DNA of 64,000 nt from Mesoterricola silvestris. GTDB taxonomy: Bacteria > Acidobacteriota > Holophagae > Holophagales > Holophagaceae. Position numbers and translations under genes: made by a program. Shown in pieces: positions 37,469 to 40,400 of this stretch (positions are counted from its first letter, which is position 1; every line of letters begins with the position of its first letter). The notes beneath the pieces are model-generated. The model was not told the origin of the DNA, did not search any database, and saw only the letters and a program-made list of their open reading frames with translations. The stretch spans positions 248,001 to 312,000 of the forward strand of contig NZ_AP027080.1 in NCBI RefSeq assembly GCF_030295405.1, read 5' to 3'.

Positions 37469-40400
37469 ATGAGCGTTCAACAGAACATCTACCGCCAGCG
37501 TGTGCAGTTCTCGAAAATCCGCTCCCTGGTTCCCATCCCGAACCTGATCGACATCCAGAAGCGCAGCTACGACGAATTCCTGCAGATGAACCTGCTCCAC
37601 ACGGAGCGGGAGGGCCGCGGCCTCAAGGCCGTCTTCGAATCCATGTTCCCCGTGCACAACGGCAAGAACCCCGACGGCAGCGACGCGAGCCTCGAGGTGG
37701 AGTTCGTGGACTACACCGTGGGCCACTGGGCCTGCAAGTGCGGCAAGAACGAAGGCCTCGAGCACCTGCGCACCACCTGCAAGAGTTGCGGCCACCACAT
37801 CGTGACGGACCACCCCAAGGACCCCACGGTGGACTGCCCCAAGTGCGGCACCCGCAACAAGAACCAGGCGAAGATCTGCGACGTGTGCAGCGAGCCCGTG
37901 GGCCTGCACCAGAAGATGCGCATGGAGGAGTGCGTGGAGCGCGGCGCCACCATGGCCTCGCCCCTGAAGATCCGCGTGCGCCTCAACCAGTTCGACAAGG
38001 ATGAGAAGGGCAACCGCCGCTACAAGCAGAGCCAGGAGTCCGAGGTCTACTTCGGCGACCTCCCGACCATGACCGACCGCGGCACCTTCGTCATCAACGG
38101 CACCGAGCGCGTCATCGTCTCCCAGCTGCACCGCAGCCCTGGGGTATTTTTCGCCATCAGCAACGACAAGGCCCTCTACAGCGCCCAGGTGATCCCCTAC
38201 CGCGGCAGCTGGATCGAATTCGAGCTGGACACCAAGGGCCTGCTCTACGCCCGCATCGACCGCAAGCGCAAGTTCCTGGGCTCCACCTTCCTCCGCGCCC
38301 TGGGCCTCTTCGACGAGCGCCTCGCGGACAACCAGTCCATGCTGGCCCACTTCTACACGGCGCAGCGCTTCACCCTGAAGGGCGCCGCCGTCTACCTTCA
38401 GCCCAGCGAACTCCTCATCGGCCAGAAGGCGATGGAGGACATCAAGAATCCCAAGGACAAGGAGATCATCGTTCCCAAGGGCAAGGCCGTGAGCCGGCGC
38501 CTCCTGGAAGCCATGGTCAAGGCCGGCGTCCAGCAGGTGGCCGTGGAGCGCGGCATGCTGGACGGCGCCGTGCTGCTGGAGGACGTGGTCAACATGAACA
38601 CCGGCGAGGTGCTGCTGGAGGCCAACGACGCCTTCGTGCAGACGCACCTCGAGATGTTCCTGGCCAACAACGTCGACGAGTTCGCGGTGTGCTTCCCCGA
38701 GAACGACGCCACCGGCAAGGTCTTCACCGAGACCCTCTCCAAGGACCACACCGAGGATAGCGAAGAGGCCGCCAAGGAGCTCTTCAAGAAGATCCGGCCC
38801 GGCGAACCCGCCACCCTGGAATCCAGCAAGAAGCTCCTCTACTCCATGTTCTTCGACGGCCAGAAGTACGACCTCTCCAAGGTGGGCCGCCACAAGATGA
38901 ACGCCAAGCTGGGCCTGACCACGGAGCTGGAGGCCCGCACCCTGTCCACCGAGGACTTCGTCGCCACCGTCCACTACCTCCTGCGCCTCAAGAAGTACGA
39001 CACCACCCGGTCCGACCGCGTGGATGAAGTGGCGCCCGTGAAGAAGGACGACATCGACCACCTGGGCAACCGCCGCGTCCGCAGCGTGGGCGAACTGCTG
39101 GAGAACTGCTTCCGCGTGGGCCTGGTCCGCGTGCAGCGGGCCATCAAGGAGAAGTTCTCCATGGCCCAGGATCCCAACAGCCCCCTGCAGCCCCACGACC
39201 TCATCAACTCCAAGCCCGTCATCGCGGCCATGAAGGAGTTCTTCGGGTCCAGCCAGCTGTCCCAGTTCATGGACCAGACCAACCCCCTGTCGGAGATCAC
39301 CCACAAGCGCCGCCTGTCGGCCCTCGGACCGGGCGGCCTCAGCCGCGACCGCGCGGGCTTCGAGGTGCGCGACGTGCACACCTCCCACTACGGCCGCATC
39401 TGCCCCATCGAGACCCCGGAAGGCCCGAACATCGGCCTCATCTCCAGCCTCTCCTGCTACGCCCGCATCAACGAGTTCGGCTTCATCGAGAGCCCCTACC
39501 TCAAGGTGGAGAACGGCCGCATCGTGAACTACGCCAAGGTCACCAGCGTGGGCGACAGCAAGTTCGGCTACATGCAGGTTGTGCCCCTGGACGAGCTGGA
39601 GGCCGAGAACGCCAAGCTTGAGAAGGCCGGCAAGCGCCCCGCCAAGTCCGAGATGCACGCCTGGTACCTCTCCGCCTGGGAGGAGGACGCCCACACCATC
39701 GCGCAGGCCAACGTGCCCGTGGACAAGGAGGGCAACATCCTGGACGAGTTCGTGGTGGCCCGCGTCGCCGACGAAACCAAGACCGTGGAGCGCGACAAGG
39801 TCACCCTCATGGACGTGAGCCCCAAGCAGCTCGTGTCCGTGGCCGCCAGCCTCATCCCCTTCCTCGAGAACGACGACGCCAACCGGGCGCTCATGGGCGC
39901 CAACATGCAGCGCCAGGCCGTGCCGCTGGTCCGCACCGAGGCCCCCATCGTGGGCACCGGCATGGAATACTACGCCGCCCGCGACTCCGGCGCCTGCGTG
40001 CTCTGCCGCCGCTCCGGCATCGTGGAGACGGTGGACGCCAACCGCATCGTGGTGCGGGTGGAGGACGACCCCGACACCGAGGGCGAGGAGAGCGGCGTGG
40101 ACATCTACACGCTCATCAAGTACGCCCGGTCCAACCAGAACACCTGCCTCAACCAGGTGCCCCTGGTGAAGAAGGGCGAGTACGTCGCCTCCGGCCAGAT
40201 CCTGGCCGACGGCCCCTGCTGCGAGCACGGCGAGCTGGCCCTGGGCCGCAACCTGGTGGTCGCCTACATGCCCTGGCGCGGCTACAACTTCGAGGACGCC
40301 ATCCTCATCAGCGAGCGCATCGTCAAGGAAGACCTCTACACGACCATCCACATCGAGGAATTCGAGGTCCACGCCCGCGATACCAAGCTGGGCCCCGAAG

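What the first reader, a model, noticed from the sequence alone, without database searches (positions are those of the whole stretch)
37715..37920. Double zinc-ribbon-like insert in RNA polymerase beta
RpoB residues about 85-150 carry four cysteine pairs (Cys89/91, 104/107, 123/126, 137/140) between VDYTVG and EECVERG, two ends separated by only about 7 residues in E. coli RpoB. The frame is clean and the flanks align normally, so it is a true insertion. RpoB of well-studied bacteria has no zinc site here. On the polymerase it would sit near the base of the protrusion/lobe, where it could contact upstream DNA, a sigma factor or a lineage-specific regulator.
Basis: partly seen in the sequence, partly recalled or inferred. 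Interest (0 to 1): 0.78.

Follow-up and report, generated by a model that had tools for sequence, protein, structure and literature searches.

The report
Acidobacterial RNA polymerase zinc-knuckle insertion
Most sampled bacteria of the phylum Acidobacteriota carry an extra eight-cysteine module, very likely holding two zinc ions, in a part of RNA polymerase that lies near promoter DNA; E. coli does not have it, and its job is unknown.

Summary
Window RpoB (37469-41860 +) has 68 residues with eight cysteines (37724-37927) where E. coli beta has seven residues, between Gly76 and Glu84. The insert runs through Acidobacteriota: 269 of 297 genomes match, and 250 of 251 distinct eight-Cys rows share CxC-x12-CxxC-x15-CxxC-x10-CxxC. 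It is under purifying selection (dN/dS 0.17; flank 0.15), sits in the beta1/protrusion domain and was lost in a few lineages. Where cysteines decayed in part, they went as pairs 1+4 (four events) or 2+3 (one event), which points to two nested Cys4 sites rather than two ribbons in tandem. The predicted structure is confident; its 2-3 stretch fits LysW and IBR ribbons, at low Z. No metal, partner or function was shown. The likeliest role is a built-in contact for DNA or a factor at the upstream side of the cleft. A 2024 survey of RNAP-beta insertions lists none in this domain and never mentions zinc; Lane and Darst's catalogue could not be read. Verdict: real, phylum-wide, apparently undescribed variant of lineage-specific RNAP insertion.

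The parts
37469..41860 (+). rpoB, RNA polymerase beta subunit, 1463 aa
   Evidence: open frame; NCBIfam TIGR02013 rpoB, 1707 bits over cut-off 801
37724..37927 (+). the insert, residues 86-153, in place of E. coli beta 77-83
   Evidence: alignment with E. coli rpoB; an 87-aa query spanning it matches 269 of 297 Acidobacteriota genomes
37733..37741 (+). knuckle 1, Cys89-x-Cys91 (outer site)
   Evidence: decayed together with knuckle 4 in four lineages
37778..37789 (+). knuckle 2, Cys104-x2-Cys107 (inner site)
   Evidence: lost together with half of knuckle 3 in G043; kept in the lineages that decayed at knuckles 1+4
37835..37846 (+). knuckle 3, Cys123-x2-Cys126 (inner site)
   Evidence: x15 spacing to knuckle 2 in 251 of 251 distinct eight-Cys rows; LysW/IBR-like stretch in the model, low Z
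37877..37888 (+). knuckle 4, Cys137-x2-Cys140 (outer site)
   Evidence: as knuckle 1
41907..46145 (+). rpoC; its zinc-binding domain carries DWECLCGK, like the insert's first knuckle

Best explanation
The insert is a small metal-folded module, gained once at or near the base of Acidobacteriota and inherited vertically. Eight cysteines make two nested Cys4 sites: an inner zinc ribbon from knuckles 2+3 and an outer site from knuckles 1+4 that clamps the two ends of the insert together on a loop of the beta1/protrusion domain. Zinc has a structural role. The module enlarges the protrusion, the domain on top of which promoter DNA is placed in the closed complex and which lies near the upstream edge of the bubble, where CarD, Mfd and RfaH (a NusG-family protein) also bind in other bacteria. 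I think it most likely works as a built-in contact element that touches DNA or a lineage-specific factor and so tunes promoter melting, escape or upstream-DNA handling. Shown: the insertion, its spread and conservation, the purifying selection and the pattern of losses. Strongly inferred: nested pairing and metal binding (about 0.85). Inferred only: the contact function (about 0.35).
For: Insertion in the protrusion: model flanks align with E. coli beta 40-129 (Z 6.9, 1.8 A over 85 residues) and Thermus beta 36-127 (Z 8.2, 1.9 A over 84). Spread: 269 of 297 genomes; 79 of the 80 named loci kept bear acidobacterial titles (names judged by me), and the one titled Verrucomicrobia lies in a bin that also holds an insert-free rpoB. 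Spacing identical in 250 of 251 distinct eight-Cys rows. Partial decay only as 1+4 (family f34, G096, G284, G326) or 2+3 (G043); starred branches of the careful tree force 4 separate outer losses, those of the earlier quick tree 3; in 12 of 12 complete f34 rows the outer site is broken and all four inner Cys are kept. AlphaFold2 pLDDT is 90-96 over model residues 41-100 (all eight Cys) and 81 over the last part of the insert; residues 12-49 and 16-52 of the insert-only model fit IBR (Z 2.3, 1.3 A over 35) and LysW (Z 2.4, 2.2 A over 37), the stretch of knuckles 2+3. Selection: median dN/dS 0.17 against 0.15 in the flank. Location: closed-complex DNA lies on the protrusion and CarD binds it by the upstream bubble edge (PMC7722741, PMC4593161; passages); a TRCF RID-beta1 crystal structure exists (3mlq, title); RfaH contacts it (PMC11001881, passages).
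Against: No metal was measured and no model coordinates were given, so sulphur distances were not seen. VIA-align Z values for the insert model are low (best 3.2), and RanBP2-type fingers and eL40 also appear among its rows. By sequence, the best PDB match of the insert profile is to knuckles 3-4 of a double-zinc-ribbon protein (DZANK1, E 3.7e-9 summed over weak stretches), which suits a tandem reading. Five loss events are few: by hand, 3 x (1/3)^5 = about 0.012 under equal chances; and the families were searched more deeply after a decay had been seen there. Median dN of the insert is 0.128 against 0.081 in the flank, so it changes faster. Lineages f53, f58, f4 and part of f30 live without a usable insert, so it is not essential everywhere. 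Net charge is near zero (mean +0.7 in 217 rows, +2 in the window). No partner correlates: CarD-like short frames occur in 19 of 29 genomes with and 8 of 9 without a usable insert (my count).
Confidence: 0.6

Rival explanations
1. Two tandem zinc ribbons: knuckles 1+2 form one Cys4 site, of the beta' ZBD kind, and knuckles 3+4 a second, RanBP2/eL40-like site.
For: CxC-x12-CxxC is the spacing of the beta' zinc-binding domain, and hhalign of the insert against 13 beta' ZBD rows gives 94.7% over 26 columns, score 40.5, against at most 23.9 in 200 column shuffles. The insert profile's best PDB match is DZANK1 at 3-4 (E 3.7e-9), with eL40 at 3-4 (E 0.005) and beta'/gamma chains at 1-2 (E 0.012-0.05) further down. 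Pfam DZR touches 67 of 70 members at E <= 0.01.
Against: All five loss events break at least one Cys in each of these supposed sites while sparing a full nested site. Nearly all of the beta' similarity sits in about ten residues round knuckle 1. The insert model fits a beta' chain poorly (9e85_D, rmsd 8.9 A, E 2.1).
Confidence: 0.15
2. The insert's first knuckle, or its first half, was copied from the neighbouring rpoC zinc-binding domain and later re-paired with new knuckles.
For: (N/D)WEC(K/L)CGK(L/Y) in both; score 40.5 exceeds all 200 shuffles that keep Cys and the following Gly (top 30.5), and all 200 that also keep W and E (top 40.4); rpoC lies directly downstream.
Against: With N, W, E and the three columns after CxCG also kept, 21 of 200 shuffles reach the score, so beyond a motif of about ten residues nothing is left; short zinc-knuckle motifs converge easily; the Cys pairing seems different.
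Confidence: 0.15
3. A redox or metal sensor: the eight Cys are not mainly structural, but release zinc or form disulfides and so change transcription under oxidative or zinc stress.
For: Eight conserved Cys; precedent: DnaJ zinc site 2 has oxidoreductase activity towards DksA (PMC8262869, passages).
Against: Spacing and knuckles are those of structural ribbons; the outer or inner site can be lost while the rest stays; no test here of redox behaviour.
Confidence: 0.1
4. A neutral relic: an insertion tolerated at a permissive surface loop, its cysteines kept only so that the loop folds and does no harm.
For: Two or three clean losses, one short remnant (f58) and five single-site decays; dN 1.6 times that of the flank.
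Against: 269 of 297 genomes match it, with dN/dS near the flank's and conserved non-Cys residues such as Trp87, Gly96 and Arg101 (W 111, G 112 and R 104 of 112 rows; window numbers mine).
Confidence: 0.2

Closest known systems
Lineage-specific insertions of bacterial RNAP beta (beta-i series of Lane et al., named in PMC2939025; BEAN domains of Alvarez-Carreno et al. 2024, PMC11515920)
   Same: A clade-restricted domain set into the conserved core of beta, vertically inherited, with occasional loss.
   Different: It lies in beta-uD1 (E. coli 1-152), where their Table 1 and list of five sites have none; it is a Cys-rich knuckle module, while most of theirs are BEAN folds; zinc does not occur in their main text. 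The Lane et al. alignments were not readable here.
Zinc-binding domain of RNAP beta' (N-terminal)
   Same: CxC-x12-CxxC spacing and the motif (N/D)WECxCGK.
   Different: Other subunit; eight Cys instead of four; pairing 1+4/2+3 by co-loss.
DnaJ cysteine-rich domain
   Same: Four knuckles; in DnaJ the mutant of zinc site 1 changes C147, C150, C200 and C203 and C186 belongs to site 2, an outer and an inner site (PMC8262869, passages; the outer/inner reading is mine and recalled).
   Different: No CxxCxGxG repeats, first knuckle CxC, other spacing; alike in topology only, no membership.
Zinc ribbons of Rpo12/RpoP, LysW, TFIIB, eS27
   Same: Knuckles 2+3 with CxxC-x15-CxxC spacing match their profiles or models.
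   Different: Those are separate small proteins or domains; no outer site wrapped round them was looked for.
CarD and Mfd RNAP-interacting domain on the beta1 lobe
   Same: Act at the same domain of beta; [quoted passage not shown]
   Different: Trans-acting Tudor-like domains; no sequence relation was tested.

Membership tests
Lineage-specific RNAP-beta insertion | Flanks align continuously with canonical beta; extra segment in between | tested here: met
Lineage-specific RNAP-beta insertion | Restricted to one lineage | tested here: inconclusive
   269 of 297 Acidobacteriota. In one other phylum 5 of 288 genomes match: the contaminated bin G345, and four partial hits (query residues 24-69 of 80) in frames of 676-718 or 239 aa.
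BEAN insertion domain | Position in uD2, uD3, uD4 or uD5 of beta | tested here: not met
   E. coli equivalent 77-83 lies in beta-uD1 by their Table 1
BEAN insertion domain | BEAN fold (CATH 3.90.105.10) | not tested
   no BEAN profile or structure was compared
Zinc ribbon (Cys4) | Two CxxC knuckles at ribbon spacing joined by a short beta hairpin | tested here: met
   knuckles 2+3, x15; strands E67-69, E77-79, E86-88 in the model; LysW fit, Z 2.4
Zinc ribbon (Cys4) | Binds zinc | not testable with these tools
   needs metal analysis
Pfam DZR (PF12773) | Score over the curated cut-off | tested here: not met
   for the window: 26.9 bits (87-aa piece) and 22.0 (63-aa insert) against 27.3; 67 of 70 members reach E <= 0.01, their bits were not shown
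beta' zinc-binding domain | CxC-x12-CxxC spacing | tested here: met
beta' zinc-binding domain | Both knuckles bind one metal together | tested here: inconclusive
   indirect: co-losses pair 1 with 4 and 2 with 3, against it
DnaJ cysteine-rich domain | Four CxxCxGxG repeats | tested here: not met
   first knuckle is CxC and no xGxG follows
DnaJ cysteine-rich domain | Nested sites 1+4 and 2+3 | tested here: inconclusive
   indirect: co-losses point to it

The most novel reading that the evidence does not exclude
Acidobacteriota run their genes with a polymerase whose beta protrusion carries a built-in, two-zinc initiation factor: a nested zinc module, its first knuckle borrowed from the neighbouring beta' zinc domain, that acts in cis on promoter DNA or on a phylum-specific factor, doing inside the core enzyme what CarD-type proteins do in trans, and that some lineages have since reduced to one metal or shed.
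Probability: 0.12. Interest if true: 0.82.

Novelty: new variant of a known kind. Interest (0 to 1): 0.58.

Why it matters
Acidobacteriota are, from general knowledge, among the common soil bacteria, and I found no paper on their RNA polymerase structure in the searches made. A conserved metal module at the protrusion of the core enzyme would change how promoter opening is regulated in a whole phylum, would be a phylum marker, and offers natural half-site variants (outer-only, inner-only and none) with which its role can be tested directly.

Tried and rejected
CarD replacement: the CarD/Mfd RID family was sought in 38 genomes. A long frame (818 aa or more), taken as Mfd, occurs in 38 of 38. 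CarD-like short frames (175-367 aa) occur in 27 of 38: in 19 of 29 with a full or single-site insert and 8 of 9 without one, so the insert neither replaces nor needs CarD in any simple way (counts mine from the listed frames).

DNA binding by charge: mean net charge +0.7 over 217 eight-Cys rows (duplicates included), range -7 to +7; no support.

Homology with the whole beta' ZBD: not accepted as a domain homologue; a motif of about ten residues remains unexplained. Of 21 rpoC stretches scanned, 9 gave no ZBD, presumably because the fetched stretch missed it.

A named non-acidobacterial carrier (Verrucomicrobia bacterium AV19, L182): taken as a contaminant contig. The same bin has a second rpoB without the insert.

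Earliest branch without insert: the quick tree put f4 and part of f30 at the base. After adding two f30 genomes that have the insert, they group with them (90/100), so loss is likelier. The root rests on two long outgroup branches.

Fold search of the insert alone gave no match at E <= 0.001 and Z at most 3.2, so no fold identity is claimed; the context model too has no Foldseek match at E <= 0.001 (best 2.8e-3, an E. coli beta). beta' ZBD and DnaJ entries are absent from the 26 VIA-align rows; this excludes nothing.

Literature: ten searches were made. Seven aimed at this insert; five of these returned none or nothing on it, and the lists (20 of 1,043 shown) gave only the papers named here. 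Searches were for context. Lane and Darst's paper was tried by an id recalled from memory, not held, so whether they list this site is unknown. Seen of papers: PMC11515920 abstract, sections 2.1, 2.2, 2.6 and passages; PMC4593161, PMC4593229, PMC5100998, PMC2939025, PMC11001881, PMC7722741, PMC12615793, PMC7822876 and PMC8262869 passages only.

Rows dropped: L021 and L169 are fragments and L170 does not read as an insert; L108 and L232 gave no usable frame; L302 was a useless 200-base fetch; L349 was read in a wrong frame and is ignored. L064, L108 and L129 were left out of the first tree. The 72 rows of the second tree were chosen by hand out of 281 distinct rows. 79 of the rows read come from loci found by a pattern that requires knuckle 1, so they cannot show its loss. 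The spacing count used a pattern with x12 fixed and the other gaps free within limits; rows that failed it were printed and looked at.

Changed on review: two membership rows on Cys pairing and the lineage row were set to inconclusive, DZR to not met, and the DZANK1 match and the faster dN were added.

Full report
WHAT IS THERE. By its frames the window holds an rplJ-rplL-rpoB-rpoC order (names of the small genes by eye). The rpoB frame (37469-41860 +, 1463 aa) matches the NCBIfam rpoB equivalog at 1707 bits. Its N-terminal part aligns with solved beta subunits up to at most residue 85 and again from about residue 149, with nothing in between in the three alignments printed. Against E. coli rpoB fetched as L253, Gly85 equals Gly76 and Glu154 equals Glu84; 68 residues stand in place of 7. 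The gene lies in a 4,994,678-base single-contig genome.

HOW WIDE IT IS. An 87-aa query spanning the insert matches 36 of 41 genomes of the near-relative search and 269 of 297 genomes sampled evenly from the phylum. That query includes some flank, so I read sequences. Of 281 distinct N-terminal rows (two outgroup rows included; doubtful genomes sought out on purpose; 79 rows from loci preselected for knuckle 1), 251 have all eight Cys, 250 of them with exactly CxC-x12-CxxC-x15-CxxC-x10-CxxC and one with two extra residues in knuckle 2. Of the 28 genomes without a match, 20 were listed. A flank query found rpoB in 9 of these 20; the other 11 gave no rpoB hit, so they say nothing. Those nine are f4 (3), f30 (2) and f53 (3), which have a short loop, and f58 (1), which keeps a degenerate remnant.

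The 80 kept bear acidobacterial titles, Aminicenantes included, except one Verrucomicrobia bin. That bin holds two rpoB genes: the insert-bearing one is on a 4.3-kb contig, the other is a gene without insert, so I take the first as contamination. Among 288 genomes of that bin's phylum, 5 match: the bin itself, and four matches to query residues 24-69 only, in frames of 676-718 or 239 aa, which are not RpoB length. Other phyla were not searched one by one.

GAIN AND LOSS. On a careful maximum-likelihood tree of 72 hand-chosen rows with the insert columns removed, the six states need 10 changes. Lack of the insert in f53 is nested deep among carriers, and lack in f4 and part of f30 groups with f30 genomes that have it. 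One early gain and several losses fit best; the root itself is weak (87/88), and an earlier quick tree without the two f30 carriers put f4 and f30 at the base.

PAIRING OF THE CYSTEINES. Where the module has decayed in part, it has decayed in a telling way. In family f34 knuckle 1 is SxS and knuckle 4 has lost its first Cys, while knuckles 2 and 3 are whole in 12 of 12 complete rows. G096, G284 and G326 have lost one or both Cys of knuckle 1 and the first of knuckle 4, with 2 and 3 whole. G043 has lost both Cys of knuckle 2 and one of knuckle 3, with 1 and 4 whole. Starred branches force four separate outer losses (three in the quick tree). No complete row that still has the insert lost Cys from only 1+2 or only 3+4. 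Under equal chances for the six possible pairs of knuckles, five events all fitting one pairing have a probability of about 3 x (1/3)^5 = 0.012, a hand calculation. Three groups were sampled more deeply after a decay was seen there. The direct reading is two nested sites, 1+4 and 2+3. DnaJ has such a pairing, as far as the passages of PMC8262869 show.

STRUCTURE. AlphaFold2 with 70 rows gives pLDDT 90-96 over model residues 41-100, which hold all eight Cys, and 81 over 101-110 (mean 81.9, pTM 0.62); the insert alone has mean 88.6, pTM 0.59. The flanks fit E. coli beta 40-129 (Z 6.9, 1.8 A, 85 residues) and Thermus 36-127 (Z 8.2, 1.9 A, 84), which places the insert in the beta1/protrusion domain. 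For the insert alone, Foldseek has nothing at E <= 0.001. VIA-align Z values are at most 3.2; residues 12-49 fit an IBR domain at 1.3 A over 35 (Z 2.3) and residues 16-52 fit LysW at 2.2 A over 37 (Z 2.4), the stretch of knuckles 2 and 3, while RanBP2-type fingers (Z 2.5-2.7) fit only at 5-6 A. No coordinates were available, so no sulphur distances were measured. By sequence profile, the best PDB match is DZANK1 at 3-4 (E 3.7e-9 for the whole chain, from several stretches of which the best has 0.38 alone); then Rpo12 at 2-3 (E 8e-4), eL40 at 3-4 (E 0.005) and beta'/gamma at 1-2 (E 0.012-0.05). Sequence alone therefore does not choose a pairing.

THE BETA' RESEMBLANCE. The first knuckle reads (N/D)WEC(K/L)CGK(L/Y), as does the beta' zinc-binding domain encoded next door. 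hhalign scores 40.5; column shuffles with Cys kept reach at most 23.9, with the following Gly kept too at most 30.5, and with W and E kept too at most 40.4 (200 each). With N, W, E and the three columns after CxCG kept, 21 of 200 reach it. So the likeness is real but confined to about ten residues. Copying from rpoC or convergence cannot be told apart.

WHAT IT MAY DO. Median dN/dS is 0.17 in the insert (77 pairs) and 0.15 in the flank (76 pairs), so it is under purifying selection, though its median dN is higher, 0.128 against 0.081. The protrusion has double-stranded promoter DNA placed on top of it in closed complexes (PMC7722741), forms a tunnel for the template strand with the sigma finger (PMC4593229), holds the CarD RID near the upstream bubble edge (PMC4593161) and is contacted by the RfaH N-terminal domain (PMC11001881). 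Which of these faces the insert's loop looks at was not measured. Presence of CarD does not follow presence of the insert, and the insert is not basic. I therefore commit to a built-in contact element at the upstream side of the cleft, with about 0.35 confidence for that part, and about 0.85 for a nested two-metal module.

KNOWN OR NEW. The closest survey, Alvarez-Carreno et al. 2024, lists five sites of lineage-specific domains in beta, none in beta-uD1 (E. coli 1-152), and neither zinc nor protrusion occurs in its main text; Acidobacteria appear once, as members of a group. It left out insertions under 50 residues. Seven searches of the open library aimed at the insert found no description. 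Lane and Darst's insertion catalogue, which may list this site without comment, could not be read (id recalled). I rate it a new variant of a known kind.

Noticed in passing
window 38015-38059 (RpoB residues 183-197): The IKE motif of E. coli beta 117-119, recalled as the Mfd/CarD docking strand, is replaced (SQE or SQD) in 4 of 4 Holophagaceae read in full; of 16 other Acidobacteriota 9 have IKE, 6 a near form (xKE or IKQ) and 1 (G133) has lost it. The window genome has a long Mfd-like RID frame but no CarD-like short frame.
   Followed up: partly
window RpoB residues 843, 918, 1265, 1332: Further cysteines: 843, 1265 and 1332 are Cys in 4 of 4 Holophagaceae and 0 of 16 other Acidobacteriota read in full; 918 (GPCC) is Cys in the window only. 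A possible extra metal or redox feature.
   Followed up: no
L182 / L251 (QHPX01000178.1): A Verrucomicrobia bin (AV19) of the species-genome collection contains an acidobacterial-looking rpoB contig beside another rpoB without insert: likely contamination.
   Followed up: yes
L153-L164 (family f34): All 12 complete rows keep only the inner Cys4 site and have a loop about 6 residues longer before the IKE strand: a natural outer-site variant.
   Followed up: partly
L063, L069, L140, L143: In all four outer-site losses the second Cys of knuckle 4 survives while the first is gone; the reason is unknown.
   Followed up: no
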